Shown here one piece after another: positions 26,699 to 53,169 of a stretch of 64,000 nucleotides of DNA. Source of the DNA: Terripilifer ovatus. GTDB lineage: Bacteria; Pseudomonadota; Alphaproteobacteria; Rhizobiales; Beijerinckiaceae. Position 1 is the first letter of the stretch. Every line of letters starts with the position of its first letter. The notes under the pieces are model-generated. The model was given only the letters and a program-made list of their open reading frames with translations. It searched no databases and was not told the origin of the DNA. Both the position numbers and the translations under genes were made by a program. Location: positions 174,801-238,800 of the forward strand of contig JARHVB010000083.1 of NCBI GenBank assembly GCA_029222685.1. Direction: 5' to 3'.

Positions 26699-27159
26699 TT
26701 TCCCTCGCTGCCGACGTTTGCGTATGGCGCAACAGCGAGTGTGTCATTGATAAGCGTCAAGCATCGGCCGCATGCGTTCCAATCCGGCCGGTCCATCGCC
26801 TGCCACCGCGGGCGCGCATGATTTCGATCTGGCACAGGCATCCTGCTTTGCCATAGAATCGGGTGAATCCAGGGAAGCATGCAGGCTGCAACCTCCCTGC
26901 GCCCGTCCCAGTTGGCCGCTGGCCACCCCGAAGCTCGAAAGGTGGCGGGCCGCGACCGATAGTGATGATCACTACGTTTACGCTATAGCCCTATGATTTC
27001 CGCTCAACTCTAACGCACTTTCGGCGTTCCGGTCGATCCTGCATCACTAGATCGCGTTTCGTCACCGTGGATCATCGCAGCAACCGGCATGAATCAGGTT
27101 GTCGAGTGTCGATTATCACTATAGCGTTCCCCACGAAGGCTTGGTGAGAATCACTGACG
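26699..27159. other. Intergenic region holding the probable left end of the mobile element
   Basis: No convincing gene. It contains the palindrome at 26960-26974, a GTGGCGG heptamer (26942-26948) identical to the one at the right-hand tRNA junction (42289-42295), and ATCACT-type half-sites upstream of the HigA-like gene. The heptamer is the only candidate left att core I found, and it is short enough to be chance. Confidence 0.4.
26960..26974. promoter_or_regulatory. Perfect 15-bp palindrome, Fur-box-like
   Basis: TAGTGAT-G-ATCACTA. With flanks it matches 14 of 19 positions of the classical Fur box. It is 262 bp upstream of the ferric-reductase gene and 186 bp upstream of the HigA-like gene, whose promoter holds further ATCACT half-sites (27115, 27150). 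Either could be the target. Confidence 0.4.
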
Positions 27160-27468
27160 ATGCACCCAGGAACGACAGTCCGGCAGGATTGCCTTGAAAA
27201 GAACGGATTGAGCGTCACCGACGCTGCTCGGGTTCTTGGGGTGGACAGGCAGACCCTCAGCAACTTGCTGAACGCTAGGTCGGGCATCTCCCCAGAGATG
27301 GCCGTCCGGCTGGAAAAGGCGTTCGGCACACCTGCCCGTGAGTGGCTGATGCGGCAACTCGATTACGAGTTGGCCGAGGTCATGCGTCGGGCCAAGAAAA
27401 TCAAGGTCGAGCCTTTCCGTGCATCGACCACGGAAAGCGGGGGAATGCATGAACGCCGTCGAGATTGA
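27160..27468 (+). CDS. HigA-family HTH regulator / antitoxin-like protein
   Basis: A 102-aa protein of the HigA/XRE group: HPGTTVRQDCLEKNGLSV, the helix-turn-helix DAARVLGVDRQTLSNLLNAR and AVRLEKAFGTPAREWL. No HigB toxin frame lies upstream, where HigB normally is, or downstream. Instead the gene overlaps the methyltransferase start by 20 bp and opens a five-gene operon. It is best read as the operon's autoregulator, comparable to controller proteins of restriction systems, or as an antitoxin-like safety valve. DNA binding is predicted, not shown. Confidence 0.82.
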   Translation: MHPGTTVRQDCLEKNGLSVTDAARVLGVDRQTLSNLLNARSGISPEMAVRLEKAFGTPAREWLMRQLDYELAEVMRRAKKIKVEPFRASTTESGGMHERRRD

Positions 27469-30250
27469 AGAGGCCTTATCCGTACTCGCCGAGCAGCCGT
27501 TCGACGCGCAAGAGTTTCCCTTCTCCTTCCTTGAAGCCTTCGGCAACAAGATCACGACCATTAAGCGGTTGCGCTCTGGCACGTCGAACAAGTCAGATGT
27601 GGGCGGCGTTCTCCAGACCAACAACATCCATATCGCCACTGCCGATCCCGGCGGCGTGACAGAAAAACTCGCCACGCTACGGGCTAGCCCCGCTACTGCG
27701 AGGGGGAAGGTCAGGTTCATTCTGGCCACTGATGGCGACATGTTCGAGGCGGAGGATTTGCAAACCGGCGAAACCGTCGCCTGCGCCTATGCCGACTTTT
27801 CAGCTCATTTTGGTTTCTTCCTGCCGCTTGCTGGTATCTCTTATACCAAGGAAATCAAAGAAATAGAGATGGATATGAGGGCGGCTCGCCGCCTCAACCA
27901 ACTCTATGTGACATTGTTAAGTGATAATCCTGATTGGGGAACCGCTGATCGTCGCCCTGATATGAATCATTTCATGGCTCGGTTGATCTTCTGCTTCTTC
28001 GCGGAAGATACAGGCATCTTCGCCAAAGGGTTGTTCACGACAACTTTGCAACAGATGAGCGCGTCGGACTGGTCCATCACGCATGAAATCATCGGCGAGA
28101 TATTTCGGGCCATGAACATTCCGACCACCCATGAAGGTCAGGTCGATGATCGTTATCGACGAGCGGCGAGCATTAGGAGCTGGGCCAATGCCTTTCCTTA
28201 CGTGAACGGCGGATTATTTTCGGGTAACCTCGATGTGCCGCGTTTCAGCCGGATCGCGCGGACCTATCTGCTCCATATCGGCGGCCTTGATTGGCGGAAA
28301 ATCAACCCGGATATTTTCGGGTCGATGATTCAGGCCGTTGCCGACGATGAAGAGCGCGGTGCAGTGGGGATGCACTACACAAGCGTTCCCAATATTCTGA
28401 AAGTGCTCAACCCGCTGTTTTTGGACGACCTGCGCGAAAAGTTGGAAGAAGCTGGTGGCAACCTCCGAAAGCTCCTTAACCTGCGCAACCGAATGGCGAA
28501 AATTCGGGTATTCGATCCAGCCTGCGGTAGCGGCAATTTCCTTGTCATCGCATACAAAGAAATACGAGCCGTCGAAGCTGAGGTTAACCGGCGGCGTGAT
28601 GAGAAAGACCGAAAGTCGGATATTCCGCTTACTAACTTTCGGGGTATCGAACTACACGACTTCCCTGCCGAGATCGCCCGCTTAGCCCTTATCATTGCCG
28701 AGTTCCAGTGCGATGTTCTATATCGCGGACAACAACTCGCGCTCAACGAGTTCCTTCCACTCAGTGCTGAGAATTGGATTACTCGTGGGAACGCGCTCCA
28801 GCTCGATTGGCTGAGTATCTGTCCGCCGGGAGGGACCGGCGTGAAGCTGGTAGGCAATAACCTCTTTAGCACTCCGCTGGATCAGGCGCAGATCGACTTC
28901 GAAAATGAAGGTGGGGAAACGTATATTTGTGGAAACCCTCCATATAGCGGTCAGTCCGAGATGAGCGCGCGGGAGAAGGACGACTTAGCAGCCGTTTTCG
29001 CGAGAACAACGGTTGCGTGGAAATCTTTGGACTATGTGTTTGGCTGGTTTCAAAAGGCCGTGGAGTTTTGTTCAGAAGGTGCAGCTTGCGCCGCCTTCGT
29101 TGCGACTAACTCAATATGCCAAGGACAACAGGTCCCTGCATTTTGGCAGCCATGTCTCAATAGTGGGGCAAAGATTCACTTCGCCAGAACATCATTTAAG
29201 TGGAAAAATCTCGCACAGAACAATGCGGGCGTCACTGTTGTAGTAGTAGGGCTGACCTATCAGCCGCTGCCTGCAAAGCTGTTTGTCGAAGATGGTGGGG
29301 ATTTTCCCACAGAGCGAAAAGTTGACCTGATTGGACCTTATCTAATTCCAGACAGAGACACTATAATTCATAAGGTTAGTGCCCCGATTAACGGACTCCA
29401 TCCTATGGATTATGGCAGCAAACCTGCTGACGGCGGCGGATTGATTATAAGGTCGAACGAATATCTTGAAATTGAAAATGAAATAGTAAGGAGATTCATC
29501 AAGAAATATCTTGGTAGTGACGAATACATTGATGGAAGACTTAGATATTGCTTATGGATTGCATCTGATGAAGTGGAAGAGGCTCTAACATATCCTTTCA
29601 TCCGCGATAGGGTCGAGCTTGTGCGTGGCTTCCGCGCGAAAAGCACGAAGGCCAAAACTCGCGAACAAGCCGCCACCGCATATGCGTTTGCAGAGATACG
29701 TCATGGGCAGTCATCCGGGGACGACATCCCATTGATAATTCCAATACATACAAGTGAAAACCGCTCAGTCTTACCAGTTGGAGCATTGGAGCGCGGTGCC
29801 GTTGTATCGAACGCTGCCTTTGCTCTTTATAATGCACCACTTTGGAATCTATCTCTCATTGCTTCCCGCTTGCACCTTATCTGGATCGCTACGGTCTGCG
29901 GCAAACTGGAAACCCGGTATCGCTATTCTAATACGCTTGGTTGGAACACCTTTCCCGTTCCGCCACTGACCGAGAAGAACAAAGCTGATCTGACTCGCTG
30001 CGCCGAGGACATCCTTTTAGCGCGTGAGGCGCATTTCCCTGCGACCATCGGTGACCTCTACGATCCAGAGAAGATGCCGGCCGATTTGCGCGAGGCGCAC
30101 GAGCGCAACGACGAGGTGCTCGAGCGCATCTATATCGGGCGGCGGTTTCGCAACGACACCGAGCGGCTGGAAAAGCTGTTCGACCTCTATACCAAAATGA
30201 CCGCATCGGCGGGCGCAGCGAAAAAACGGAAGGCGGGGGCAACAGCGTGA
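27449..30250 (+). CDS. MmeI-like N6-adenine DNA methyltransferase
   Basis: A 933-aa class I DNA methyltransferase with MmeI-type organisation. The N-terminal domain contains FLEAFGNKITTIKRLRSGTS; a helical spacer spans about 150-340. The SAM motif FDPACGSGNFL starts near residue 355 and the catalytic motif is NPPY at 496-499, the order of gamma-class amino-methyltransferases. A long C-terminal target-recognition part and a terminal helical domain (PEKMPADLREAHERNDEVLERIY) follow. I see no D...ExK nuclease in the N-terminus, unlike MmeI, so cutting would depend on partner proteins. The recognition part (about 29.3-29.6 kb) is visibly AT-richer. It starts at 27449 after GGGGGA and overlaps the helicase gene by 4 bp. 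Confidence 0.88.
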   Translation: MNAVEIEEALSVLAEQPFDAQEFPFSFLEAFGNKITTIKRLRSGTSNKSDVGGVLQTNNIHIATADPGGVTEKLATLRASPATARGKVRFILATDGDMFEAEDLQTGETVACAYADFSAHFGFFLPLAGISYTKEIKEIEMDMRAARRLNQLYVTLLSDNPDWGTADRRPDMNHFMARLIFCFFAEDTGIFAKGLFTTTLQQMSASDWSITHEIIGEIFRAMNIPTTHEGQVDDRYRRAASIRSWANAFPYVNGGLFSGNLDVPRFSRIARTYLLHIGGLDWRKINPDIFGSMIQAVADDEERGAVGMHYTSVPNILKVLNPLFLDDLREKLEEAGGNLRKLLNLRNRMAKIRVFDPACGSGNFLVIAYKEIRAVEAEVNRRRDEKDRKSDIPLTNFRGIELHDFPAEIARLALIIAEFQCDVLYRGQQLALNEFLPLSAENWITRGNALQLDWLSICPPGGTGVKLVGNNLFSTPLDQAQIDFENEGGETYICGNPPYSGQSEMSAREKDDLAAVFARTTVAWKSLDYVFGWFQKAVEFCSEGAACAAFVATNSICQGQQVPAFWQPCLNSGAKIHFARTSFKWKNLAQNNAGVTVVVVGLTYQPLPAKLFVEDGGDFPTERKVDLIGPYLIPDRDTIIHKVSAPINGLHPMDYGSKPADGGGLIIRSNEYLEIENEIVRRFIKKYLGSDEYIDGRLRYCLWIASDEVEEALTYPFIRDRVELVRGFRAKSTKAKTREQAATAYAFAEIRHGQSSGDDIPLIIPIHTSENRSVLPVGALERGAVVSNAAFALYNAPLWNLSLIASRLHLIWIATVCGKLETRYRYSNTLGWNTFPVPPLTEKNKADLTRCAEDILLAREAHFPATIGDLYDPEKMPADLREAHERNDEVLERIYIGRRFRNDTERLEKLFDLYTKMTASAGAAKKRKAGATA

Positions 30251-32304
30251 CCATCAAAAAGAAATCAGTTCCTTCAGTTTCGGTTTCCTATGCCCGCAAC
30301 GGCAGCACCACTAAGTCCAACGCTTTTGGCATGAGGCCAATGCAGGAACGCGCTTTTGAGAAGCGCGGTGAGCAATATCTTCTCATCAAGTCGCCCCCGG
30401 CTTCGGGCAAGAGCCGCGCCCTCATGTTCATCGCGCTCGACAAACTGGCGAACCAAGGGCTGACACAGGCGATCATTGTCGTGCCGGAGAAAAGCATCGG
30501 CTCCAGCTTCGCCGACGAGCCGCTGGCCAAGTTCGGCTTTTGGGCTGACTGGTCCGTGACGCCTAAATGGAACCTGTGCAACGCCCCCGGCGAGGACGGT
30601 GGAAAGGTCAATTCGGTCGGCGCTTTCCTTGAGAGCGATGACAGGGTTCTGGTCTGCACCCACGCTACCTTCCGCTTCGCGGTGGACAGGTTCGGTGTGG
30701 AGGCGTTCGACAATCGGCTGATCGCGGTGGACGAATTCCACCATGTTTCCGCCAACCCGGACAACAAGCTGGGCCTGCGCCTAGGCCAGTTCATTGCCCG
30801 GAACAAGGTGCATATCGTCGCCATGACCGGCAGCTATTTCCGGGGCGATGCCGAAGCCGTCCTTGCTCCGCAGGACGAGGCCAATTTCGATACCGTCACC
30901 TACACCTATTACGAGCAGCTAAACGGCTACGAGTATCTGAAATCGCTCGACATCGGCTATTTCTTCTACTCTGGCGCTTACTCCGACGACATCCTTGCCG
31001 TGCTGGACCCAGCCGAGAAAACCATTATCCACATCCCCAACGTCAATTCGCGGGAAAGCACCGGGCAGAAGATCAAGGAAGTCGAACACATCATCGAGGA
31101 GCTTGGCGAATGGCAGGGCATCGACCCAGCCACCGGCTTCCAGTTGGTGAAGACGCCGGAAGGCCGCATCCTTCGCATTGCCGACCTTGTGGACGACGAC
31201 GCGGCCAAGCGGGATCGCGTTTCCGCCGCGCTCAAAGATCCCGCGCAGAAGAACAACCGCGATCATGTGGACATCATTATTGCGCTCGGTATGGCGAAGG
31301 AAGGCTTCGACTGGATTTGGTGCGAACACGCGCTGACCGTCGGCTATCGTTCCAGCCTGACCGAGATCGTGCAGATCATCGGTCGGGCCACCCGCGACGC
31401 GCCGGGCAAAACCCGCGCCCGCTTCACTAACCTGATCGCCGAACCGGATGCATCCGAGGAAGCTGTCACCGAGGCCATCAACGATACCCTAAAAGCTATT
31501 GCTGCCAGTTTGCTGATGGAGCAGGTGCTTGCGCCCCGTTTCGAGTTCAAGCCGAAGAACCCACAAAGCGGGCCGGTCGAGGGCTTCGACTATGGTGAAG
31601 GCGGCTATGACCCCAACAAGACCAATGTCGGCTTCAACGAGGAAAGCGGCCAGTTCCAGATCGAGATCAAGGGCCTTGTCGAGCCAAAGAGCGAGGAAGC
31701 GCAGCGCATCTGCCAGCAGGATTTGAACGAGGTCATCGCTGCCTTCGTGCAGGACAAGCCTGCCATCGAGCGCGGCCTGTTCGATGAAGAGCTTGTTCCC
31801 GAGGAACTGACGCAACTTCGCCTAGGCAAGATTATCAAGGATAAATATCCCGAGCTTGACGAGGAAGATCAGGAAGCCGTGCGTCAGCACGCCATCGCCG
31901 CCCTCAACCTTACTCAGCAGGCGAAAAAAATAGCGCTTGGCGGCGATAGCGCGGAACCGAATGCCAACACGGCGCTGATCGACGGCGTGCGCAAATTCGC
32001 GCTGAGCGTCACGGAGTTGGACATCGACCTGATCGACCGGATCAATCCGTTTCAGGAAGCCTATGCCATCCTGGCCAAGACCATGAGCGAGGAAAGCCTG
32101 AAACAGGTCGCAGCCGCTATTGCTGCCCGCCGCACCAACCTGTCGCCAGAGGACGCTCTGCAGCTCGCTGTGAGAGCTAGGACATTCTTGAAAGAGCGCG
32201 GGCGGGCACCTTCAATTACGTCGGCGGACGCATGGGAAAAGCGGATGGCCGAAGGCGCTGTTGCCTTCCTCCGGTTCAAGAAAGAGGGCCGTTATGGCGA
32301 ATGA
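30247..32304 (+). CDS. SF2 DEAD/DEAH-type helicase
   Basis: A 685-aa superfamily 2 ATPase. Visible motifs: PMQERAF (31-37, Q-motif-like), Walker A PPASGKSR (50-57), II DEFHH (162-166), III TGSYF (194-198) and VI QIIGRATR (376-383). The C-terminal 250 residues are helical and charged with no known domain, and may contact the partner proteins. It starts with GTG inside the methyltransferase stop and is followed by an 11-bp overlap with the GIY-YIG gene. A translocase for a restriction or defence complex is the likely role. Confidence 0.86.
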   Translation: MTIKKKSVPSVSVSYARNGSTTKSNAFGMRPMQERAFEKRGEQYLLIKSPPASGKSRALMFIALDKLANQGLTQAIIVVPEKSIGSSFADEPLAKFGFWADWSVTPKWNLCNAPGEDGGKVNSVGAFLESDDRVLVCTHATFRFAVDRFGVEAFDNRLIAVDEFHHVSANPDNKLGLRLGQFIARNKVHIVAMTGSYFRGDAEAVLAPQDEANFDTVTYTYYEQLNGYEYLKSLDIGYFFYSGAYSDDILAVLDPAEKTIIHIPNVNSRESTGQKIKEVEHIIEELGEWQGIDPATGFQLVKTPEGRILRIADLVDDDAAKRDRVSAALKDPAQKNNRDHVDIIIALGMAKEGFDWIWCEHALTVGYRSSLTEIVQIIGRATRDAPGKTRARFTNLIAEPDASEEAVTEAINDTLKAIAASLLMEQVLAPRFEFKPKNPQSGPVEGFDYGEGGYDPNKTNVGFNEESGQFQIEIKGLVEPKSEEAQRICQQDLNEVIAAFVQDKPAIERGLFDEELVPEELTQLRLGKIIKDKYPELDEEDQEAVRQHAIAALNLTQQAKKIALGGDSAEPNANTALIDGVRKFALSVTELDIDLIDRINPFQEAYAILAKTMSEESLKQVAAAIAARRTNLSPEDALQLAVRARTFLKERGRAPSITSADAWEKRMAEGAVAFLRFKKEGRYGE

Positions 32305-33514
32305 CCTCGATCTTGACGAACTCGCCAATGACCTTGCCGACTTCGCCCAGCCAGAAAAGAAGGGCGGGCGCACCCCGCGCGAAGAACGCATCATCGCCGG
32401 GTTCGAGGAAATCCAGCGTTTCGCCGATGAACATGGCCGCGCCCCACAGCATGGAGAAGAGCGCGATATATTTGAGCGGCTGTATGCCGTGCGTCTCGAC
32501 CGCCTTCGCTCGTTGGAGGAGTGCCACTCATTTCTCATGCCGTTCGACCGTCAGGGCTTGCTGAGCGGCGCAGAAATCACCGCGTCTGCATCCACCGACG
32601 AAATCGACATCGGCGCGTTGATGGCCGATCTTGAGGATGCAATTGGCGATCCTGAAATCACCGAGCTACGCCATGTCCGCTCTGCCGAAGAGAAACGCGC
32701 CGCCGAAGAGATCGCTAACCGTGAACCTTGTCCCGACTTCGACAGGTTCAAGCCCCTATTCGAGCAAGTGCGGATCGACCTTGATTCAGACGTTCGCACC
32801 ACACGACAGTTTGTGAAGGACGCCGGTTTCCTGAAAGCGGACATCATCGAAGGGCAGTTTTTCATCCTTGGCGGTCAGGTCGCCTATGTCGCCGAAGTCG
32901 GCGAAACCTTCCGCGCGCCGAACGGGGAAACTGACGCCCGCTTGCGCGTGGTCTATTCCAACGGGACGGAAAGCAACCTCCTACGCCGCTCGCTACAACG
33001 GGCGCTCTACAAGGACGAGGCCGGACGGCGCATCACCGAGCCGAGCGCCGGCCCGCTGTTCGCCGGCGAAAGCGACGACGAGGATATTGCGAGCGGGACC
33101 ATCTACGTCCTTCGCAGCAAGTCCGATCATCCGCTTGTCTCGGCCAACCGCGACGTGCTGCACAAGATCGGTGTGACCGGCGGCGACATTACCCGCCGTC
33201 TTGCCAATGCTAGGCTCGATCCAACCTTCCTCATGGCCGAGGTCGAGGTGGTCGCCACCTACACGCTCTACAACATCAACCGCGTGAAGCTCGAAAACCT
33301 GATCCACCGCGTCTTTGCTCCTGCCCAACTGGACATCGAGATCAAGGATCGTTTCGGCAATCCGATTGTGCCGCGCGAATGGTTCCTTGTGCCGCGCTTC
33401 GTCGTGGACGATGCCGTGGAGCGGATCAAGGACGGCACGATCACGGATTATATCTACGACCCGGCAGCGGCGCGGCTGGTGCAGCAAAAAGAAAAATCAG
33501 GGAAACATCCATGA
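32294..33514 (+). CDS. GIY-YIG nuclease-family protein (MUG113/T5orf172-like)
   Basis: A 406-aa protein. The N-terminal 250 residues are acidic and helical (LDLDELANDLADFAQPEKK), with a small middle domain (FILGGQVAYVAEVGETF). The C-terminal domain (about 265-380) carries the MUG113-type GIY-YIG signature: GTIYVLRSKSDHP, HKIGVTGGDITRRLANA, LENLIHRVFAPAQLDIEI and GNPIVPREWFLVP. The conserved Arg and Glu expected for catalysis are present. The ATG at 32294 overlaps the helicase end by 11 bp, and the stop overlaps the next start (ATGA). It is a probable DNA-cleaving subunit of the cassette. Confidence 0.85.
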   Translation: MANDLDLDELANDLADFAQPEKKGGRTPREERIIAGFEEIQRFADEHGRAPQHGEERDIFERLYAVRLDRLRSLEECHSFLMPFDRQGLLSGAEITASASTDEIDIGALMADLEDAIGDPEITELRHVRSAEEKRAAEEIANREPCPDFDRFKPLFEQVRIDLDSDVRTTRQFVKDAGFLKADIIEGQFFILGGQVAYVAEVGETFRAPNGETDARLRVVYSNGTESNLLRRSLQRALYKDEAGRRITEPSAGPLFAGESDDEDIASGTIYVLRSKSDHPLVSANRDVLHKIGVTGGDITRRLANARLDPTFLMAEVEVVATYTLYNINRVKLENLIHRVFAPAQLDIEIKDRFGNPIVPREWFLVPRFVVDDAVERIKDGTITDYIYDPAAARLVQQKEKSGKHP

Positions 33515-35520
33515 CTTCGATGCGGGGGGATATTGTCAATCGTGTGAAGCGGCTACCGAAACCGTCTATGGCGGCGGAGGCACTTCAACCCGTGTTCGAG
33601 GCGGTCAGCAATTCCCTTCATGCCGTCGAGGATGCTTTTGGCGACCAGTATCAGCAACAGGGAAAAATTACCGTCACCATCGTCAACCCCCGGTCGCCGG
33701 ATGATATTGAAATCACGGTTGATGATAATGGCGTTGGGCTAGAACCGGCCCGATTTGAAGCATTTTGCACCACCGATACGGACTATAAAATCTCTCGCGG
33801 CGGCAAGGGAGTCGGGCGTCTTCTTTGGCTGGACGCTTTCGACAGTATCAAGGTAGCGAGCATTTACCGTGACCAAGGAACGCTGTTCCGCCGGTCCTTC
33901 ACCTTCCGTTTGGAAGCGCAGGATCAGATTACGGAGGAGCAAACCGAACCCGTAATTGGCGCGGCCAGCACCGGCACGGCGATCACCTTCAAGCGGCTTC
34001 GCGGAACAGCCTACCGCGACAAATTTCCGAGCCAGACCGCTACCATCGTCAAGCATTTCGGATCGCATTTTTTTGCGGACTTTATCATGGGACGGTCCCC
34101 GACCGTCATTGTCGATATAGACACTAACGCGACGACATTCCCTCAAGAAATCCAAAATCTCCGGGTCGAAGACCGAGGCGTTGCCGCCATAGAGAGCCAA
34201 GAGTTCGGCACCCTGTCTCTCGCAAGTTTCGTTTGTGACAAGGCAGCGAGTGCCAATTTCGATGGCCTGCATCAGATGCACCTAGTCGCAAACGGGCGCA
34301 CGGTTACAACCCGGAAGATCGACGGGTTGATCGGGATTGGCCGCTTTGGCTCCGATGGCACCAACGTATATCATGGCTGCGTTACCGGCGATTTTCTGGA
34401 TGAGCGTGTCAATCAGGAGCGGACGCAATTCAACTTCGATGAGAGCATCATCGAAGCGATCGTCCGTGAATGCTCCGACCATGTGCGGACGAACGCCATC
34501 CACGAGGAAATTACGCATTTCGACAATCAGCGCCTCGGAACGATGCAGGAGTTCATGCAGGAATATCCATCGTTCGCCTTCGAGGACGCGCCTGAGCTTC
34601 TGGCGAGAACGCCAAAGAACGCCGTGAAGCCAGAGCAATTTGCCCAAGCCCTGATCCCCATTCGGATTCGTCGCGATAAAGAACGGAATGACACGATCCA
34701 AAAGATCGTATCGCAGCTTGGAGGAAATGACGACGTTCCCGCGAATTTCGCCGAGGCGATCCGCAAGGCAGCAGATGACATTCGGGCTGAGGAGCAGCGG
34801 CAACTTACCGAATATGTGTTGCGGCGCAAAACTGTCCTTGACGTGATGGAGGTTCTGACCCGTCGTATCCGGGAACGTGCAGACGGCTCACAGGATTTTC
34901 ATCTCGAAGAAACGCTCCACCAATTCATTTGCCCCATGAAGCTACGAGGCGACGATCCATCGAAAGTGGAACGGTCAGATCACGATCTTTGGATCATCGA
35001 CGAACGCTTGACCTTCACCAAGTATTTCGCGTCGGATGTGCCGTTCACGCAGATTGTCGATGGCGAAACCAGCACAAAGCGACCTGACCTTCTCATATAT
35101 GATCGCCTCTACGGACTCGGGGCCGAGGGTGAAGACCCGCTGAAGCGCGTGATGCTTGTAGAGTTCAAGCATCCGGGCCGGAAGGATTACGACGAGCGAT
35201 ACTCTCCAATGAGCCAGATCAGCGAGTATATTACAAAGCTCAAGAACGGCGAGATCATTGATTTTCGGGGCGGTCGGGTCCGCGTCGCGGACGATTGCAT
35301 CTTCTACTGCTACGTCGTCGCCGACATCGTTGGGAAGCTCGAAATCCATACAAACGGCTGGCGCACGACATCGAATGGCCGGGGTCGCATTCAGGAGTTG
35401 AGCGGGAAATTCCGGGGCATCATCGAAATCATCGAATGGGTTGATCTGCTTGGCGACGCCCGCCTGCGGAACCATGCTTTCGTGTCCGCAGCGGGGCTTC
35501 GATACGAAAAGCATCCGTAA
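33511..35520 (+). CDS. GHKL ATPase with C-terminal PD-(D/E)XK-like nuclease motif
   Basis: A 669-aa protein. The N-terminal Bergerat-fold ATPase shows the N-box in QPVFEAVSNSLHAVED, G1 DDNGVG, G2 GGKGVGRL and a later GTAITF strand, as in MutL/MORC/Hsp90-type proteins. The C-terminal third has RPDLLIYDRLYG (Asp526), then LVEFKHPGRKD (Glu551, Lys553) and QISEYITKL: the spacing of a PD-(D/E)XK nuclease core. An ATP-gated clamp fused to a nuclease is unusual. The start at 33511 overlaps the preceding stop by 4 bp; longer upstream frames only shadow the GIY-YIG gene. Last gene of the operon. Confidence 0.84.
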   Translation: MTSMRGDIVNRVKRLPKPSMAAEALQPVFEAVSNSLHAVEDAFGDQYQQQGKITVTIVNPRSPDDIEITVDDNGVGLEPARFEAFCTTDTDYKISRGGKGVGRLLWLDAFDSIKVASIYRDQGTLFRRSFTFRLEAQDQITEEQTEPVIGAASTGTAITFKRLRGTAYRDKFPSQTATIVKHFGSHFFADFIMGRSPTVIVDIDTNATTFPQEIQNLRVEDRGVAAIESQEFGTLSLASFVCDKAASANFDGLHQMHLVANGRTVTTRKIDGLIGIGRFGSDGTNVYHGCVTGDFLDERVNQERTQFNFDESIIEAIVRECSDHVRTNAIHEEITHFDNQRLGTMQEFMQEYPSFAFEDAPELLARTPKNAVKPEQFAQALIPIRIRRDKERNDTIQKIVSQLGGNDDVPANFAEAIRKAADDIRAEEQRQLTEYVLRRKTVLDVMEVLTRRIRERADGSQDFHLEETLHQFICPMKLRGDDPSKVERSDHDLWIIDERLTFTKYFASDVPFTQIVDGETSTKRPDLLIYDRLYGLGAEGEDPLKRVMLVEFKHPGRKDYDERYSPMSQISEYITKLKNGEIIDFRGGRVRVADDCIFYCYVVADIVGKLEIHTNGWRTTSNGRGRIQELSGKFRGIIEIIEWVDLLGDARLRNHAFVSAAGLRYEKHP

Positions 35521-35613: not shown

Positions 35614-35880
35614 TCACGCCCGATCCGGCTGCGGCTGCACTCTGTCGTTCGTGTCTGCCGGACGCTCCATCTCGAACGCCATCTTTCCGAGTTTCGTCCA
35701 TGTATCGCGCGCATGTTCGCCACCCTCGCTCTTGAGCTTTTCGGCGATCCAGATCATCGCGCCGTAGATCATGGCGCGGTCGTCATTGGTCAGGTCCACG
35801 ATGCCCGCCTTGACGACGAGGCCGCCGAGTTCGATCAGATGCCGCGTTCGCTTGCGGCGCTCGATCTGCCATGTCCGCAT
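35614..35880 (-). CDS. traD: Conjugal transfer accessory protein TraD (Ti-type)
   Basis: An 88-aa protein starting MRTWQIERRKRTRHLIELGG. The segment RKRTRHLIELGGLVVKAGI is the TraD signature of agrobacterial and rhizobial mobilization regions, where it helps assemble the relaxosome at oriT. It begins two bases after the traC stop and is read leftward, away from oriT. The frame extends further upstream inside traC, but that part is a shadow. Confidence 0.78.
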   Translation of the reverse strand: MRTWQIERRKRTRHLIELGGLVVKAGIVDLTNDDRAMIYGAMIWIAEKLKSEGGEHARDTWTKLGKMAFEMERPADTNDRVQPQPDRA

Positions 35881-35881
35881 G

Positions 35882-36208
35882 TCATGCCGCGCCCGTTGTG
35901 CCTGATGCCGGTTGCGCGCTGCCCGGTTGCGTTGGAGCGCCGCCAGTGTCGCGGTCAGATGCCGGAGCAGATCGCCGCGACCGGCCTTGAAAGAACGCAG
36001 CGCCGCGCCTGGCCCATGCCTCCCTCTTTCCGGCATCCTTGGTTTCGGCCAGCGCGACGAGCGCACCGGCCAATTCGTCGGCGGTGAGGTCATCGGCCCC
36101 GGTGGCGATGACCAGTTCGCCAAGCTGCTGCACCTTCCGTATCTTGAGTTCCCGTGCCTTGTCCTCAAGCGCCTTGAGTTCCGCGTCATAGTCTCTCGGT
36201 TTCCGCAT
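35882..36208 (-). CDS. traC: Conjugal transfer accessory protein TraC (Ti-type)
   Basis: A 108-aa protein starting MRKPRDYDAELKALEDKARE. It has a basic coiled-coil start followed by LGELVIATGADDLTADELAGALV and ETKDAGKREAWARRGAAFFQ, typical of TraC-like relaxosome accessory proteins. It is divergent from traA across a 181-bp region containing oriT, as in Ti and Q-type plasmids. The Ala/Pro/Thr-rich tail is probably disordered. Confidence 0.75.
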   Translation of the reverse strand: MRKPRDYDAELKALEDKARELKIRKVQQLGELVIATGADDLTADELAGALVALAETKDAGKREAWARRGAAFFQGRSRRSAPASDRDTGGAPTQPGSAQPASGTTGAA

Positions 36209-36332
36209 CGTCGTGTCCTTTCCCGGTCGCAAGTCGTTGATGCAGTAAGGATAGTTGCGCAGACAGCGGAACGCAGTAATGTTGTCGGGACGGTGTGGCA
36301 CGGCCCGGTCCATCCCGAGATTTTTTCGAGGG

Positions 36333-36370
36333 AGGGCGCGCTTATACGTCGTTCCGACGTGCGCTTTACC
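36333..36370 (+). other. Probable origin of transfer (oriT/nic), Ti/Q type
   Basis: In the traC-traA gap, GGGCGCGCTTATACGTCG (36334-36351) closely resembles the nic core of Ti and RSF1010-family oriT sites as I remember it (GGCGC..TTATACGTC). It is followed by a perfect hairpin ACGTCG-TTC-CGACGT (36346-36360). Position and relaxase type agree. Confidence 0.68.
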
Positions 36371-36389
36371 GTGGCAATGCTTGATCGCG

Positions 36390-39380
36390 ATGGCGATCTA
36401 TCATCTTCACGTCAAGGTCATTGGCCGCAAGGCCGGAAGCAGCGCCGTGGCGTCTGCCGCCTACCGCTCGGCTTCGCGGATGCGCGACGAGCGCATCGAC
36501 CGCGTGCAGGACTTTTCCGCCAAGCGCGGCGTCGTCCATTCCGAGGTCATGCTGCCGGATGGCGCGCCCGAGCATTTTGGCGACCGCGAACGGCTCTGGA
36601 ACGATGTGGAGGCGTTCGAGGTCCGCAAGGACGCGCAGCTTGCCCGCGAGGTGGAGTTCGCCATTCCGCGTGAGATGACGCAGGCGCAGGGGATCGAACT
36701 GGCCCGCGACTTCGCGCGAGATCAGTTTGTCGATCAGGGCATGATTGCCGATCTGAATGTGCATTGGGATTTTGCCGAGGACGGCATGCCCAAACCCCAT
36801 GCCCATGTCATGCTGACCATGCGCAGCGTGGACGAGAACGGTTTCGGCCCGAAAGTGCGGGATTGGAACCGCACCGAGATGGTGGAGCGGTGGCGCGAGC
36901 GTTGGGCCGAGCATGTCAACGAGCGCCTTGCCGAACTCGACATAGACGCCCGCATCGACCATCGCAGTCTTGAGGCGCAGGGGATCGGGCTTGAGCCACA
37001 AAGCCAGATCGGCGCACCGGCGCAACGCATCGAAGGCGACGGCATCGAAGCCGCCGACCGCGCCGAGATGCACCGTGAGATCGCGCGGAACAATGGCGAC
37101 CGGATCATCGCCGATCCATCGGTTGCGCTGGACGCGATCACGCATCAGCAATCGACCTTTACGCGCAGGGACATGGCTATGTTCGCGCATCGGCACAGCG
37201 ACGGCATCGACCAGTTCAACGAGGTGATGGGCGCGATGCGCGGTTCACCCGGTCTGGTCGAGCTTGGGCAGGACGGGCGTGGCGAGGATCGGTTCACCAC
37301 CCGCGAGATGATCGAGACCGAACAGCGGCTCCATCGCGCCGCCGAGATGATGGCGGAGCGCGAACGCCATGACGTGAACGAGGCCGACAGACAGGCGGCG
37401 CTTGCGCGTGCAGAACAGCGCGGCCTTATCCTTTCCGGCGAGCAGGCCGAGGCGCTGGCGCATGTCACGGACGGTCGCGATCTGTCGCTTGTCGTCGGCT
37501 ATGCCGGGACGGGAAAGAGCGCCATGTTGGGCGTTGCCCGCGAGGCATGGGAGGCGGCAGGCTTCGAGGTGCGCGGCGTGGCCCTGTCCGGCATCGCGGC
37601 CGAGAATCTGGAAAGCGGATCGGGCATCGCATCCCGCACCATCGCCAGCATGGAACACGGCTGGCAGAACGGGAGGGACATGCTGACTTCCCGCGACGTG
37701 CTTGTCATCGACGAGGCGGGGATGGTTGGCACGCGGCAGATGGAGCGCGTGCTGTCCCATGCGGCGGAAGCTGGCGCAAAGATCGTGCTGGTCGGCGATC
37801 CGCAGCAATTGCAATCCATCGAAGCAGGTGCAGCGTTCCGCTCGATTCATGAGCGTCATGGCGGCGTCGAAATCCATGAAGTGCGCCGCCAGCGCGAGGA
37901 CTGGCAGCGGGACGCCACGCGCGATCTGGCGAGCGGCAGAACCGGCAATGCCATTGCCGCCTATGACGCGCACGACATGGTGCATTCCGCCGAAACACGT
38001 GAACAGGCGCGCGGCGATCTGATCGACAGATGGGACCGTCAGCGGCAGGCGTCACCGGACGCGAGCAGGATCATTCTCACCCATACCAATGCCGAGGTGC
38101 GGGAACTCAACGAGGCCGCCCGCGACCGGATGCGGGAGGCTGGCGATCTGGGCGAGGACGTGCGCGTAATGGTCGAGCGTGGCGAACGCAGCTTTGCCGT
38201 CGGTGATCGCGTCATGTTCCTGCAAAACGAGCGCGGGCTTAGCGTCAAGAACGGCACCCTCGGAACCATCGAACAGGTCAGCGCGCAGAGCATGACGGTG
38301 CAGACCGACGATGGCCGGTCCATTGCCTTCGACCTGAAGGATTACGACCGTATCGACCACGGCTATGCCGCGACCATCCACAAGGCGCAGGGCATGACGG
38401 TGGATCGGACGCATGTTCTGGCGACACCGGGCATGGACGCACATGGCAGCTATGTCGCCTTGTCGCGGCACCGCGACAGCATGGACTTTCATTATGGCCG
38501 CGACGACTTCGCCGGTCAGGACAGGCTGGTGAATACCCTGTCGCGGGATCGCGCCAAGGACATGGCGACAGATTATGAACAGCAGATCGACCCCGCACAG
38601 GATTATGCCGAGCGGCGCGGCATCACCTTCCGCGCCCGTGTCGCCCAGATCATGCGCAGACTGATGCCGGAGCGCATGCGCGATGCCGTCGATGACATGC
38701 TCGACAGATTGCGCGCGCCGGGCGACGGCGTGCCTGGCCCCGAAGCCGGAACTGGCCGGGAAAGGGAAAGGACCGGGAAGCCGGTGGTGGAGCAGCAGAT
38801 CGGGGACGACCCGGAGGCCGCGTTGCGCCGTGCCCGTGGCCGGGCCTTTGTCCGTCATGCCCGTGCTGTGGACGCGATCTTCAAGGCGCAGGGGCAGGAC
38901 TTGGCTGCTACACCTGGACAGGTGCAGGAACTCAATGAGGCCCGTGCGGCCTTCAATGATCTCCGGCCCCACGGTTCTCACGATGCCGAAGCGGTTTACA
39001 AGAAGAACCCCGGCTTTGCGGCTGATGTGGCTTCTGGTGATCGTGAGCGAGCCATGCCCGCAAGGCACGCCGTGCAGCGAGAAACCGAGATGCGCCAAAA
39101 TCCCGAACTGCGGGCCGACCGCTTCGTGGAGCGGTTCCGGGACCTCAAGCAGACCGGCGACCGCCAGTATGCGGCGGGCAATTATTCCGGCTACAAGGCC
39201 GCGCGAGCAGAGATGGGCAACATGGCAAAAAGCCTTGAGCGCGATGCGCAGATGGAATCCCTGCTCGAAGGTCGCAAGAAGCAACTCGGCATCGACATGG
39301 ATTTCGACTCAGGCATGAGGCTGGGGCGGCAACTTTCCCTCAGTCATGGCCTTGGCAGAGGCCGGGGCATCGGATTGTAG
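36390..39380 (+). CDS. traA: Ti-type conjugative relaxase TraA (MOBQ) with helicase domain
   Basis: A 996-aa relaxase-helicase. The N-terminal MobA/MobL domain has MAIYHLHVKVIGRKAG, the tyrosine-bearing SAVASAAYRSASRM (catalytic Tyr near 25) and the histidine cluster PHAHVMLTMR. A RecD/TraI-type helicase follows, with Walker A GYAGTGKSAML near 370 and Walker B LVIDEAGMVG. The C-terminal region (DLKQTGDRQYAAGNYSGYK) is the TraA accessory domain. It nicks oriT, stays bound to the DNA and unwinds it. ATG 36390 starts the family sequence; the upstream open frame crosses oriT. Confidence 0.93.
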   Translation: MAIYHLHVKVIGRKAGSSAVASAAYRSASRMRDERIDRVQDFSAKRGVVHSEVMLPDGAPEHFGDRERLWNDVEAFEVRKDAQLAREVEFAIPREMTQAQGIELARDFARDQFVDQGMIADLNVHWDFAEDGMPKPHAHVMLTMRSVDENGFGPKVRDWNRTEMVERWRERWAEHVNERLAELDIDARIDHRSLEAQGIGLEPQSQIGAPAQRIEGDGIEAADRAEMHREIARNNGDRIIADPSVALDAITHQQSTFTRRDMAMFAHRHSDGIDQFNEVMGAMRGSPGLVELGQDGRGEDRFTTREMIETEQRLHRAAEMMAERERHDVNEADRQAALARAEQRGLILSGEQAEALAHVTDGRDLSLVVGYAGTGKSAMLGVAREAWEAAGFEVRGVALSGIAAENLESGSGIASRTIASMEHGWQNGRDMLTSRDVLVIDEAGMVGTRQMERVLSHAAEAGAKIVLVGDPQQLQSIEAGAAFRSIHERHGGVEIHEVRRQREDWQRDATRDLASGRTGNAIAAYDAHDMVHSAETREQARGDLIDRWDRQRQASPDASRIILTHTNAEVRELNEAARDRMREAGDLGEDVRVMVERGERSFAVGDRVMFLQNERGLSVKNGTLGTIEQVSAQSMTVQTDDGRSIAFDLKDYDRIDHGYAATIHKAQGMTVDRTHVLATPGMDAHGSYVALSRHRDSMDFHYGRDDFAGQDRLVNTLSRDRAKDMATDYEQQIDPAQDYAERRGITFRARVAQIMRRLMPERMRDAVDDMLDRLRAPGDGVPGPEAGTGRERERTGKPVVEQQIGDDPEAALRRARGRAFVRHARAVDAIFKAQGQDLAATPGQVQELNEARAAFNDLRPHGSHDAEAVYKKNPGFAADVASGDRERAMPARHAVQRETEMRQNPELRADRFVERFRDLKQTGDRQYAAGNYSGYKAARAEMGNMAKSLERDAQMESLLEGRKKQLGIDMDFDSGMRLGRQLSLSHGLGRGRGIGL

Positions 39381-39517
39381 AGCGAAGAACTTTCCTATTT
39401 GCCGCCGTTTCTACGCCATAGCCCTACGCTGCCTAAATATCAGTTGCACAACGATAAATCACTGTTCTGTCTGGTCTCTGCAATAGCCAGAAACACCCAG
39501 CAGGAGGCAGCGCAGCC

Positions 39518-39745
39518 ATGCGTCAACCAGACCGTATCGTCCGTTTGAAGACCGTTCTCGCCCGCACCGGGCTGTCCCGATCCACCATCTATCGCAAGAT
39601 CGCCGAAGGCACCTTTCCAGCCCAGATCAAGATCAGCACCAATGGCGCGGGCTGGAAGGAATCCGACATCAATCGCTGGGTCGCCAACCCTGCCGGATGG
39701 CGGCAGCGCTCGTTCAACGAATTTGATTTCCTCGATGACTTCTGA
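39518..39745 (+). CDS. AlpA-family transcriptional regulator
   Basis: A 75-aa winged-helix/MerR-like DNA-binding protein of the AlpA family: VRLKTVLARTGLSRSTIYRK, then WKESDINRWVAN. AlpA proteins commonly activate excision or integrase genes of mobile elements, which fits its place between traA and the recombinase. It overlaps the next gene by 11 bp. Confidence 0.88.
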   Translation: MRQPDRIVRLKTVLARTGLSRSTIYRKIAEGTFPAQIKISTNGAGWKESDINRWVANPAGWRQRSFNEFDFLDDF

Positions 39746-40052
39746 CCGCAGCGGCGACCACAAGCCGGTGACGGCATCCCGTTCCCGGCGCACCGAACGA
39801 CCGCCTACGGCGTCGGAGCAGCTTGAGGAATTACTGGGCTATCCGTGGCCGTTCCCCGGCAGGCCGCCCAAACATGACCTCAGCACATGGACCGTAACCG
39901 ACGACTGGCCCGATCCCGTTCCGGTCACGGAAGCCGAAATCGAGGTGTTCGAACGATGGTTCAGCGATCTCTTCGATGAAATGTTCGGCCCCGACACCGG
40001 ATCGCCCGACACAGGGCCTGAGGTTGATCTTGAAAACGGTACTACAAAATGA
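39735..40052 (+). CDS. Hypothetical protein of the mobile element, 105 aa
   Basis: A 105-aa acidic, proline-rich protein starting MTSDRSGDHKPVTAS. The middle reads LEELLGYPWPFPGRPPKHD and the C-terminal helix EIEVFERWFSDLFDEMFG. I do not recognise it. Overlap with alpA suggests co-translation and a role in excision or maintenance, which is only inference. Confidence 0.65.
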   Translation: MTSDRSGDHKPVTASRSRRTERPPTASEQLEELLGYPWPFPGRPPKHDLSTWTVTDDWPDPVPVTEAEIEVFERWFSDLFDEMFGPDTGSPDTGPEVDLENGTTK

Positions 40053-40065
40053 TACTGGATACTCC

Positions 40066-40649: not shown

Positions 40650-40690
40650 CGGCCTCGTTCGTTCAACCGGGTTTAAAAGGAGACATCGTC

Positions 40691-42304
40691 ATGACCGCTT
40701 CCACCGTGCCGCTACGCGCCGCCCTTTATCTGCGCGTCTCGACGGCGCGGCAGGCCGAGCATGACGTATCCATTCCTGACCAGAAGCGGCAGGGCGAAGC
40801 CTATTGCGAGTCACGCGGGCTGCAACTGGTCGAAACCTTCATCGAACCGGGCGCATCGGCGACCAATGACCGTCGCCCCGAGTTCCAGCGCATGATCGAG
40901 GCGGGAACGTCCAAGCCTGCGCCATTCGATGTTGTGGTGGTCCATTCGTTCAGCCGGTTCTTCCGCGATCATTTCGAGCTTGAGTTCTATGTTCGCAAAC
41001 TGGCGAAGAACGGCGTGAAGCTGGTTTCGATCACACAGGAAATGGGGGATGACCCCATGCACGTCATGATGCGGCAGATCATGGCGCTGTTCGATGAATA
41101 CCAGTCCAAGGAAAACGCCAAGCACGTCATGCGGGCTTTGAAAGAGAACGCGCGGCAGGGCTTCTGGAATGGCTCACTTCCTCCTATCGGTTATCGCACT
41201 GTCGCTGCCGAGCAGCGCGGCGCGAAGGTCAAGAAGAAGCTGGAGATCGACCCGCTGCACGCCGACACGGTGCGGCTGATCTATCGTCTTGCGCTGGAAG
41301 GTGACGGCACCACCGGCCAGATGGGCGTCAAGAACATCGTCTCCTATCTTAACAGCCGCCGTATCTTCACCCGCGACGGCGGGCGTTGGGGCATCGGGCA
41401 GGTTCACCGTATTCTGACCCGTCGCACCTACATGGGCGAGCATGAGTTCAACAAGCGATCCAAGACCAAGGAATTGAAGCCGGTCAGTGAGATCGTGACG
41501 GTTCCGGTCCCGCCCATCATCGACAAAGATACGTTCGAGGCGGTTCAGAAGCTGCTCAAGGCTCGTAACCCCAAGGTCATGCCCGCCCGCGTCATCAGCG
41601 GCCCGACCATGCTGACCGGCCTGATCCATTGCGCCAAGTGCGGCGGGGCCATGACCATCCGTACCGGCAAGGGCGGGCGCTATCGTTATTATGCCTGTTC
41701 AATGAAGGCGCGGCAGGGGCCGACCGCCTGCGAGGGCATGGCCGTGCCGATGGAGAAGCTGGACGATCTGGTCGTCAATCACCTTGAGAAACAGCTACTC
41801 CAACCCGAGCGGTTGGAAACCGTTCTTGCCGCAGCACTCGACCGGAGGGAAGAACACGCCGAGCGCCGCCGCGAGCATATCGCCGAGTTAAACAAGCGCT
41901 CAGCCGAATCGGAACTACGCCTCAAGCGGCTCTATGACGCCATCGAGGCGGGCCTTGCCGATCTGAACGATCCGGCGCTGAAAGATCGTATCGACGGCCT
42001 CAAAGCCATCCGCGATCAGGCCAAGGCCGATGCCGACCGGGCGCAGGCCATGCTTCAGAACACCGGCCAGAAGGCGGTGACGCCACAGATGCTGCGAAAG
42101 TTCGCCGCAACCGCCCGCGACCGTATCCGGCTGGAAAGCGGCGGTTATCGCCGCGACCACCTGCGTGCGCTCGCGCAGCGCGTCGAGGTAGCTGAAGGCG
42201 AGGTTCGTATCATGGGATCGAAGTCCCGGCTGCTACAGACGCTTGTGGCGGGAAGTGGCGTAAACTCAGTGCCCACTCAGGGACTGAAGTGGCGGAAGAG
42301 GTGA
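40691..42304 (+). CDS. Large serine recombinase (integrase of the element)
   Basis: A 537-aa site-specific recombinase. The N-terminal resolvase domain has the nucleophile in ALYLRVSTARQAEHDVSIPD (Ser near 18) and the arginines in HSFSRFFRDHFE. The recombinase domain and a zinc-ribbon (CAKCGGAM, then YYACSMKARQGPTACEG) follow, then a coiled coil (about 385-460). The last codons, WRKR and stop, are read from the 3' end of the tRNA-Ser gene on the opposite strand, so integration itself supplies the protein's end. Recombinases with a WRTR-type tail adjoining tRNA genes are known from other genomes. Confidence 0.92.
   Translation: MTASTVPLRAALYLRVSTARQAEHDVSIPDQKRQGEAYCESRGLQLVETFIEPGASATNDRRPEFQRMIEAGTSKPAPFDVVVVHSFSRFFRDHFELEFYVRKLAKNGVKLVSITQEMGDDPMHVMMRQIMALFDEYQSKENAKHVMRALKENARQGFWNGSLPPIGYRTVAAEQRGAKVKKKLEIDPLHADTVRLIYRLALEGDGTTGQMGVKNIVSYLNSRRIFTRDGGRWGIGQVHRILTRRTYMGEHEFNKRSKTKELKPVSEIVTVPVPPIIDKDTFEAVQKLLKARNPKVMPARVISGPTMLTGLIHCAKCGGAMTIRTGKGGRYRYYACSMKARQGPTACEGMAVPMEKLDDLVVNHLEKQLLQPERLETVLAAALDRREEHAERRREHIAELNKRSAESELRLKRLYDAIEAGLADLNDPALKDRIDGLKAIRDQAKADADRAQAMLQNTGQKAVTPQMLRKFAATARDRIRLESGGYRRDHLRALAQRVEVAEGEVRIMGSKSRLLQTLVAGSGVNSVPTQGLKWRKR
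42289..42304. other. Right attachment site in the tRNA-Ser 3' end
   Basis: The overlap between the recombinase coding end and the tRNA 3' terminus. GTGGCGG here also occurs at 26942-26948, the candidate left site. The true crossover dinucleotide cannot be read from one sequence. Confidence 0.55.
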
Positions 42305-42379
42305 GATTCGAACTCACGGTAGGCTTGCACCTACGGCGGTTTTCAAGACCGCTGCCTTAAACCACTCGGCCACCCTTCC
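42290..42379 (-). tRNA. tRNA-Ser (anticodon TGA)
   Basis: Reverse strand: acceptor GGAAGGG pairs with CTCTTCC and the encoded CCA ends at 42290. The D arm has TGGCCGAGTGG, the anticodon loop reads CTTGAAA (anticodon TGA), a long variable arm typical of class II serine tRNAs follows, and the T arm is GTTCGAATC. All parts are intact, so the element has preserved the tRNA. Confidence 0.95.
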
Positions 42380-52348: not shown

Positions 52349-52371
52349 TGCACTATGCTGCGGCCGCAAAG

Positions 52372-53163: not shown

Positions 53164-53169
53164 GTTCTA

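What the first reader, a model, noticed from the sequence alone, without database searches (positions are those of the whole stretch)
27160..35520. Five-gene overlapping operon: candidate new methylation-linked defence system
Five genes on one strand overlap by 20, 4, 11 and 4 bp: HigA-like regulator, MmeI-like adenine methyltransferase, SF2 helicase, GIY-YIG (MUG113-like) nuclease, GHKL ATPase with PD-(D/E)XK motif. A methyltransferase, a translocase, two predicted nucleases and an ATP clamp in one coupled unit on a mobile element point to restriction or anti-phage defence. It lacks the marker genes of systems I know: no PglZ (BREX), no DrmB or PLD (DISARM), no HsdS (type I), no DndFGH/Ssp, no ZorAB. 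The sequence shows the operon and motifs; the defence role is inference.
Basis: partly seen in the sequence, partly recalled or inferred. Interest (0 to 1): 0.88.

Follow-up and report, generated by a model that had tools for sequence, protein, structure and literature searches.

The report
DnmA-YeeB-YeeC operon with an add-on nuclease
The five overlapping genes are real, but they are a known three-gene DNA-methylation and restriction-like cluster with a regulator in front and, behind it, a known kind of ATP-driven nuclease that usually lives alone; the pairing is rare and worth testing, not a fixed new system.

Summary
Observation confirmed: five plus-strand genes at 27160-35520 overlap by 20, 4, 11 and 4 bp. 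Interpretation partly supported. Genes 2-4 (MmeI-type adenine methyltransferase without the nuclease motif, SF2 helicase, T5orf172/MUG113 GIY-YIG protein) are the published dnmA-yeeB-yeeC cluster, which gave no phage defence in B. subtilis; relatives are reported protective in Vibrio crassostreae. Gene 1 is a HigA-type regulator, found before the cluster in several other loci too. Gene 5 has paraMORC3 architecture (GHKL+S5 ATPase, C-terminal E-D-ExK nuclease), described in 2008; VcSduA, of the same layout, is a tested phage-defence protein.

The five genes are not a fixed system. Of the 80 closest gene-5 relatives kept from named genomes, 3 lie beside genes 2-4; of 39 other gene-4 loci, 1 has gene 5; in viral contigs, 0 of 43 and 0 of 24. 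New here: gene 5 follows gene 4 by the same ATGA overlap in five loci, once as a 31%-identical relative, and in three other loci that position holds other ATPases. Best reading: a type I-like restriction operon with an exchangeable second effector at its 3' end. Defence by this operon is untested.

The parts
27160..27468 (+). HigA-type (XRE) regulator, 102 aa; no HigB partner found
   Evidence: TIGR02607 78.7 bits; one HigB query (from L069) has no significant match near it and the 74-aa ORF at 26772-26996 has no Pfam family; HigA directly before the MTase also in A. rubi and Paracoccus plasmids, G140, G095 and L069
27449..30250 (+). DnmA-type MmeI-like N6-adenine methyltransferase, 933 aa, nuclease motif missing
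   Evidence: five MmeI Pfam domains; MmeI 5hr4 E 2.7e-134; DPACGSG and NPPY present; no [DEQ]x[KR] starting in residues 1-134
30247..32304 (+). YeeB-type superfamily II helicase, 685 aa, GTG start
   Evidence: DEAD/ResIII; SPPASGKS, DEFH, QIIGRATR; same place and order in relatives
32294..33514 (+). YeeC-type GIY-YIG (MUG113/T5orf172) protein, 406 aa
   Evidence: Pfam MUG113 and T5orf172; IYVLRS, KIG, R302 and E334 identical in 3 of 3 aligned
33511..35520 (+). paraMORC3-type GHKL+S5 ATPase with C-terminal PD-(D/E)XK nuclease motif, 669 aa; add-on gene
   Evidence: HATPase_c; GHKL residues and E-D-ExK invariant in 33 of 33; model pLDDT 82.8 matching Hsp90/TRAP1 and MutL in its N-terminal part
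35614..36313 (-). TraD-type conjugal transfer gene(s) of the carrying element (two overlapping frames listed)
   Evidence: Pfam TraD 76.6 and 61 bits
36255..39380 (+). MobA/MobL relaxase with AAA_30 helicase; true start probably inside
   Evidence: Pfam MobA_MobL 241.9 bits, AAA_30 203.9
40691..42304 (+). large serine recombinase whose 3' end overlaps tRNA-Ser (42290-42379, minus strand)
   Evidence: Pfam Resolvase/Recombinase/Zn_ribbon_recom; ARAGORN

Best explanation
The unit is a DnmA-YeeB-YeeC restriction-modification operon of a type I-like (MTase-dependent) kind, preceded by a HigA-type regulator and extended by a paraMORC3 gene. DnmA methylates one adenine in an asymmetric site on the host DNA (inferred from B. 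subtilis DnmA and MmeI). At an unmethylated site the DnmA complex recruits YeeB, which translocates on DNA, and YeeC cuts with its GIY-YIG site (inferred). Gene 5 is a second, ATP-gated effector: its GHKL+S5 part closes as a dimeric clamp on DNA and fires the C-terminal nuclease (inferred from MutL/MORC and from VcSduA). Its relatives mostly occur without the trio, so here it most likely adds a second line of defence made together with the first. Shown here: operon, motifs, missing MmeI nuclease motif, recurrence of the trio, recurrence of gene 5 in the same slot. Not shown: any activity.
For: Trio kept in 34 of 39 other gene-4 loci; of the five misses, L155 and L156 stop at contig ends, L051 and L053 are fragmentary or broken, and L141 lacks the MTase in 16 kb. 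Published identity of the trio. Gene 5 follows gene 4 by an ATGA overlap in the window, L060, L066, L069 and G140, 5 of 5. G140 carries a 31%-identical gene 5 in that slot while its genes 3 and 4 are not much further from the window's (dS 1.10, 1.32) than those of L060 (0.95, 1.09) and L069 (0.86, 1.05). Excluding the window's own genome, genes 4 and 5 share 2 of 384 genomes against 0.28 expected, p 0.028; in one of the two they adjoin. Of the 80 kept gene-5 relatives, 12 have a same-strand upstream ORF of 300 aa or more within 120 nt by my crude gene caller, 13 with L069, which it missed. PMC12137116 section 12: VcSduA, same layout, needs both its GHKL and nuclease residues for phage defence.
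Against: B. subtilis dnmA-yeeB-yeeC gave no phage or plasmid restriction in the tests reported. The gene 4/5 association is statistically weak (2 genomes, one of them with the genes on different contigs). 38 of 39 other gene-4 loci have no gene 5, so the trio does not need it. On the gene-3 tree gene-5-bearing loci are as scattered as shuffled labels. No activity was measured.
Confidence: 0.68

Rival explanations
1. Two independent defence genes that merely share a promoter: a DnmA-YeeB-YeeC system and a stand-alone VcSduA-like nuclease parked behind it on a mobile element, with no contact between them. (This overlaps with the best explanation, which does not require contact; the odds are not exclusive.)
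For: Gene-5 relatives lie apart from genes 2-4 in 77 of 80 and 43 of 43 loci. VcSduA and GrwAB are described as independent systems.
Against: Same slot and ATGA overlap in five loci including a diverged gene 5; other gene-5 relatives also sit behind modification genes: HigA plus type III-like methylase and helicase (L064), type I HsdR (L093), MmeI-like IIG (L102, L103).
Confidence: 0.35
2. One five-component machine: gene 5 is the DNA-looping clamp and main nuclease of the restriction complex, as Iyer et al. 2008 proposed for paraMORCs in general.
For: Tight translational coupling; MTase lacks its own nuclease; paraMORCs recur with SF2 helicases and nucleases.
Against: 38 of 39 other gene-4 loci lack gene 5 and have YeeC as the predicted nuclease.
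Confidence: 0.15
3. Decayed restriction relic: only DnmA works, as an orphan methyltransferase that alters gene expression, as concluded for B. subtilis.
For: Authors' conclusion in PMC9973331.
Against: All five frames are open; motifs of genes 3-5 are kept; gene 5 is under strong purifying selection.
Confidence: 0.12

Closest known systems
DnmA-YeeB-YeeC (yeeA-yeeB-yeeC) of Bacillus subtilis and relatives
   Same: MmeI-like MTase without nuclease motif, then SF2 helicase, then T5orf172/GIY-YIG protein, same order and strand
   Different: Here a HigA-type gene precedes it and a paraMORC3 gene follows; B. subtilis lies by toxin-antitoxin and recombinase genes instead (passages of PMC9973331)
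paraMORC3 (Iyer, Abhiman and Aravind 2008; authors' names recalled)
   Same: N-terminal GHKL with S5, C-terminal nuclease with E-D-ExK; sometimes with R-M genes, sometimes alone
   Different: The main text names other helicase types and mostly cytosine methylases; GIY-YIG occurs 0 times in it; its supplementary neighbourhood list was not seen
VcSduA, GHKL Shedu (type I-D), Vibrio cholerae
   Same: GHKL N-terminus and PD-(D/E)XK C-terminus; catalytic positions E27 and K557 there, E30 and K553 here
   Different: Gene 5 and ten relatives give no DUF4263 (SduA_C) hit in Pfam; profile comparison with four Shedu proteins is weak though at the right place (P 0.0023, probability 12.5%). VcSduA itself was not fetched or aligned
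MmeI, type IIL
   Same: All five domains of gene 2
   Different: MmeI carries its own PD-ExK nuclease (PMC7261158 passage); gene 2 does not
PrrC/RloC anticodon nucleases
   Same: PrrC is a second ATPase-nuclease genetically linked to a type I R-M set; in G740 an AAA_13 protein (PADLOC PDC-S06 261 bits, PrrC 26 bits; 'RloC-like' is my recalled label) fills the gene-5 slot
   Different: PrrC and RloC cut tRNA; [quoted passage not shown] Gene 5 looks like a DNase; regulation by the R-M set is untested here

Membership tests
DnmA-YeeB-YeeC cluster | MmeI-like MTase with motifs I and IV | tested here: met
DnmA-YeeB-YeeC cluster | No PD-ExK nuclease in the MTase N-terminus | tested here: met
   No [DEQ]x[KR] starting in residues 1-134 of gene 2; MmeI-like IIG controls L102 and L103 show LEAK. 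The looser scan over 43 trio MTases was not diagnostic
DnmA-YeeB-YeeC cluster | SF2 helicase then T5orf172/GIY-YIG gene directly downstream | tested here: met
DnmA-YeeB-YeeC cluster | m6A at an asymmetric site | not testable with these tools
   Needs long-read methylation data
paraMORC3 | GHKL ATPase motifs joined to S5 | tested here: met
   E30, N34, D72, G74, G76, G97, G100, G102 invariant in 33 of 33; the model matches TRAP1/Hsp90, MutL, topoisomerase IV and GyrB chains, E 4e-12 to 4e-10, TM by query only 0.22-0.34 as just one part matches
paraMORC3 | C-terminal restriction-endonuclease fold with E-D-ExK | tested here: met
   E466, D526, E551, K553 invariant; strands 527-530, 544-552, 592-603 and helix 566-578. 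The fold of this domain was not matched separately
Shedu | DUF4263 (SduA_C) domain | tested here: not met
   No Pfam hit in gene 5 at E 0.1 nor in 10 relatives at E 1; the window's genome has no DUF4263 match; profile comparison weak. 'Works like' remains possible
Type IIG/IIL restriction enzyme | MTase and nuclease in one chain | tested here: not met
   Gene 2 lacks the nuclease motif although PADLOC labels it REase_MTase_IIG
HigBA toxin-antitoxin | HigB toxin beside HigA | tested here: not met
   One HigB query (L069, Pfam HigB-like 53.3 bits): best window match E 0.027 at 60.7 kb; the 74-aa ORF upstream has no Pfam family. A very different toxin could be missed
BREX / DISARM | PglZ; DrmB | tested here: not met
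   Within the five genes PADLOC gives gene 2 cross-hits to DrmMI (81 bits) and PglX (25 bits or less) and gene 3 one to PbeA (25 bits), nothing else of these systems; window genes outside the five were not scanned with PADLOC

The most novel reading that the evidence does not exclude
The 3' end of the dnmA-yeeB-yeeC operon is a dedicated exchange slot: ATP-driven effectors of unrelated kinds (paraMORC3, an AAA_13/RloC-like protein, a PHP-AAA protein, an Mrr_N-McrB-like protein) are inserted there, in most cases by the same ATGA coupling, so that the methylation complex licenses or restrains a swappable second nuclease. paraMORC3 is likewise a portable effector that docks behind type I, type III-like and IIG sets.
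Probability: 0.3. Interest if true: 0.65.

Novelty: new variant of a known kind. Interest (0 to 1): 0.4.

Why it matters
It could help explain why DnmA-YeeB-YeeC is reported protective in one host and not in another (a second effector may be missing), and it gives paraMORC3, a prokaryotic relative of eukaryotic MORC ATPases, a methylation-linked operon in which the DNA-looping idea of 2008 can be tested.

Tried and rejected
A fixed five-gene system: rejected, gene 5 and genes 2-4 mostly occur apart.

Recent swap of gene 5 between loci, suggested by 94% protein identity against 67-69% for genes 2 and 4: not supported for the window, L060 and L069, because dS of gene 5 (1.16, 0.76) is like that of gene 3 (0.95, 0.86) and gene 4 (1.09, 1.05). 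The high identity there reflects constraint.

One origin of the pairing: on the gene-3 tree (53 rows that gave a usable frame of 57 loci given; 11 of 24 viral loci were given) the gene-5 label needs five changes, forced by starred branches, but shuffled labels need 4.9 on average, so this shows scatter only. On the gene-5 tree (43 rows) the trio label needs three changes, counted only against four rows with other R-M sets; 34 rows were in no group, shuffles need 3.2, and G140 is a long branch. Gains and losses cannot be told apart. No gene-5 remnant was found in 38 of 39 gene-4 loci at E 1e-3.

Attachment site of the element: the tRNA-Ser 3' end has no second copy in the window (up to 3 mismatches) or genome (up to 2), and a repeat search gave no candidate that I could tie to it; left boundary unresolved.

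Nuclease-motif scan over 43 trio MTases used a loose pattern over a wider zone and hit in 25 of 43 rows, the window's gene 2 included (its TKEIK near residue 135); I did not use it, and rest on the tighter test of residues 1-134 of gene 2 only.

Solved-structure profile search for gene 5 gave only chance-level hits. The first viral scan with one sequence found none; the alignment scan found 43.

Papers: Morgan 2009 (MmeI family), Piel and co-workers (I tried a recalled DOI; the citing paper lists a 2021 preprint) and Makarova 2011 are not held; what I say of them comes from passages of PMC9973331 and PMC7261158.

Full report
WHAT IS THERE. Gene 1 is a 102-aa HigA-type regulator. Gene 2 (933 aa) carries all five MmeI domains and matches the MmeI structure 5hr4 at E 2.7e-134; its methyltransferase motifs are intact, but no [DEQ]x[KR] starts in residues 1-134, whereas MmeI-like type IIG enzymes in L102 and L103 show LEAK near their N-termini. 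Gene 3 (685 aa) is an SF2 helicase with SPPASGKS, DEFH and QIIGRATR. Gene 4 (406 aa) ends in a MUG113/T5orf172 GIY-YIG domain. Gene 5 (669 aa) is a GHKL ATPase; E30, N34, D72, G74, G76, G97, G100 and G102 are invariant, and so are E466, D526, E551 and K553, in 33 of 33 aligned relatives. Its AlphaFold model (mean pLDDT 82.8, pTM 0.63) matches Hsp90/TRAP1, MutL, GyrB and SMCHD1 in its N-terminal part.

GENES 2-4 ARE KNOWN. Passages of PMC9973331 and PMC7261158 describe B. subtilis dnmA (yeeA), yeeB and yeeC: an MmeI homologue without the nuclease motif, an SF2 helicase and a T5orf172 protein, in this order, conserved in other bacteria. The authors found no effect on transformation or on three phages in B. 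subtilis, and report from another study that deletion of the dnmA and yeeB homologues of Vibrio crassostreae raised sensitivity to some phages. In my draws gene 4 has a relative in 19 of 385 genomes of the class (E 1e-10) and 25 of 398 of the phylum (E 1e-20), the window's own genome counted in each and four other genomes shared. Of the 39 other gene-4 loci fetched, 34 carry relatives of all three genes (some MTase pieces are partial, in L147 a short one). The misses are L051 and L053 (fragmentary or broken), L155 and L156 (contig ends) and L141 (no MTase in 16 kb). A HigA gene directly before the MTase recurs in G140, G095 and L069 and on plasmids of Agrobacterium rubi and Paracoccus. L069 also has a HigB gene in front (Pfam HigB-like 53.3 bits); none was found in the window with that query. 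Many trio loci carry a further gene between MTase and helicase. Of nine scanned, two are RhuM (L044, L143), two PDDEXK_4 (L045, L142), one a DUF1016/YhcG nuclease (L047); L060, L041, L049 and L054 gave no Pfam family. A tenth, L066, gave only a holin hit under its cut-off.

GENE 5 IS OF A KNOWN KIND THAT MOSTLY STANDS APART. Iyer et al. 2008 (PMC2292703: abstract, passages and one of four parts of section 3 read) define paraMORC3 as GHKL plus S5 with a C-terminal E-D-ExK nuclease, found with R-M genes or alone. Gene 5 meets each of these. PMC12137116 (section 12 and passages read) shows that VcSduA, a GHKL protein with a C-terminal PD-(D/E)xK domain, protects against phages and needs both active sites. 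Gene 5 shares the layout but gives no DUF4263 hit, and a profile comparison with four Shedu proteins is weak, so I do not file it under Shedu. In named genomes the scan confirmed 443 relatives, of which the best 80 were kept; 3 of 80 (L060 Sphingopyxis, L066 Maricaulis, L069 Sphingomonas oleivorans) lie beside genes 2-4. The 363 others were not seen, and 22 of the 80 loci are shorter than 15 kb, so pairings can have been missed. In the class draw 7 of 385 genomes have gene 5, 19 have gene 4, 3 have both (own, G140, G262), and in 2 they adjoin (own, G140); G262 has them on different contigs. In viral contigs, 0 of 43 gene-5 loci have genes 2-4 and 0 of 24 gene-4 loci have gene 5 (many contigs are short). 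Plasmid relatives (57 of 72,556 records) include Agrobacterium plasmids; in the one Ti plasmid record that I read the gene has no such partners.

WHAT IS NEW. First, the joining. Gene 5 directly follows gene 4, sharing ATGA, in the window, L060, L069, L066 and G140 (5 of 5). In G140 genes 3 and 4 are not much further from the window's (dS 1.10 and 1.32) than those of L060 and L069, but gene 5 is a distant relative (31% identity over 597 aligned residues). So the same slot has been filled by two well separated branches of one family. Trees do not say whether by gains or by replacement and loss: on the gene-3 tree the five bearers lie apart (five changes, shuffles 4.9), and on the gene-5 tree trio-linked and other members mix.

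Second, the slot. In the 39 other gene-4 loci, 8 have a same-strand ORF starting within 25 nt of the gene-4 stop. All eight were scanned with Pfam and five with PADLOC. Four are ATPases: G140 paraMORC3; G740 an AAA_13 protein (PADLOC PDC-S06); G681 an AAA_21/SMC-type protein with a PHP hit below cut-off (PADLOC Ppl 119 bits); G267 an Mrr_N plus AAA_5 protein ('McrB-like' is my label), which overlaps by a longer stretch, not by ATGA. One is an ISL3 transposase (G669), and three have no family (G721, G701, G689). Nitrobacter hamburgensis plasmid 2 has an AAA gene and mcrC shortly after the trio. No background rate for ATPases at operon ends was measured.

Third, gene-5 relatives also follow other modification genes: HigA plus a type III-like methylase and helicase (L064), a type I HsdR (L093), MmeI-like IIG enzymes (L102, L103), and, as annotated, a type I set plus Shedu on a Vibrio plasmid. 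These are a minority: by a crude gene caller 12 of the 80 (13 with L069, which it missed) have any same-strand upstream ORF of 300 aa or more within 120 nt.

HOW IT PROBABLY WORKS. Inferred: DnmA marks one strand of an asymmetric site; unmarked sites recruit YeeB and YeeC for translocation-dependent cutting, a type I-like scheme that PMC7261158 attributes to earlier authors. The HigA-type protein regulates the operon. Gene 5 forms an ATP-closed dimer on DNA and cuts with its C-terminal domain. Because its relatives mostly occur without the trio, the simplest view is a second line of defence made together with the first. PrrC, an ATPase-anticodon nuclease held silent by a linked type I enzyme, is the known precedent for true coupling (PMC3874168, passages); whether DnmA-YeeB-YeeC restrains gene 5 is open. 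The general pattern, an effector recurrently taken up by unrelated defence systems, has a published example in another nuclease (PMC12799240, abstract and introduction text seen).

LIMITS. No activity data; association of genes 4 and 5 outside the window's genome rests on two genomes of 384 (p 0.028) and on position. Literature: searches in the held library for the MmeI/GIY-YIG set, yeeA/yeeB/yeeC, T5orf172 with GHKL, GHKL with anti-phage terms, paraMORC, Shedu with GHKL and RloC/PrrC listed no paper whose title or abstract start joins the two parts; I read into only seven papers, and most subscription papers are not held.

Noticed in passing
window 35614-42379: Mobile element body: TraD-type gene(s), MobA/MobL relaxase-helicase, serine recombinase whose end overlaps tRNA-Ser; no second copy of the tRNA end found, so the left border is unknown.
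   Followed up: partly
L064:4550-12016: The same HigA start and gene-5 end enclose a different core, a type III-like methylase and a ResIII helicase, as if the middle had been exchanged. L101 keeps only gene 5, with an upstream peptide that by eye resembles the end of that helicase.
   Followed up: partly
between genes 2 and 3, for example in L041, L044, L045, L047, L049, L054, L060, L066, L142, L143: A second variable slot between methyltransferase and helicase holds RhuM, DUF1016/YhcG nuclease, PDDEXK_4 or proteins without a Pfam family (these ten scanned; others not).
   Followed up: partly
Ti plasmid NC_002377 117136-119166 (L003): Gene-5 relatives occur in 17 Agrobacterium plasmid records of 57 hit; in the one record read it lies near PIN, TIR and three-component ABC genes, perhaps an unrecorded defence island.
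   Followed up: no
L061, L062, L063, L119 (Bartonella genomes): Gene 5 is kept at 82-83% identity without any relative of genes 1-4 in the held DNA.
   Followed up: no
window 51248-54049 minus strand: ORF of 933 aa has a TctC domain only at 657-929; the rest has no Pfam match, perhaps a wrong start.
   Followed up: no
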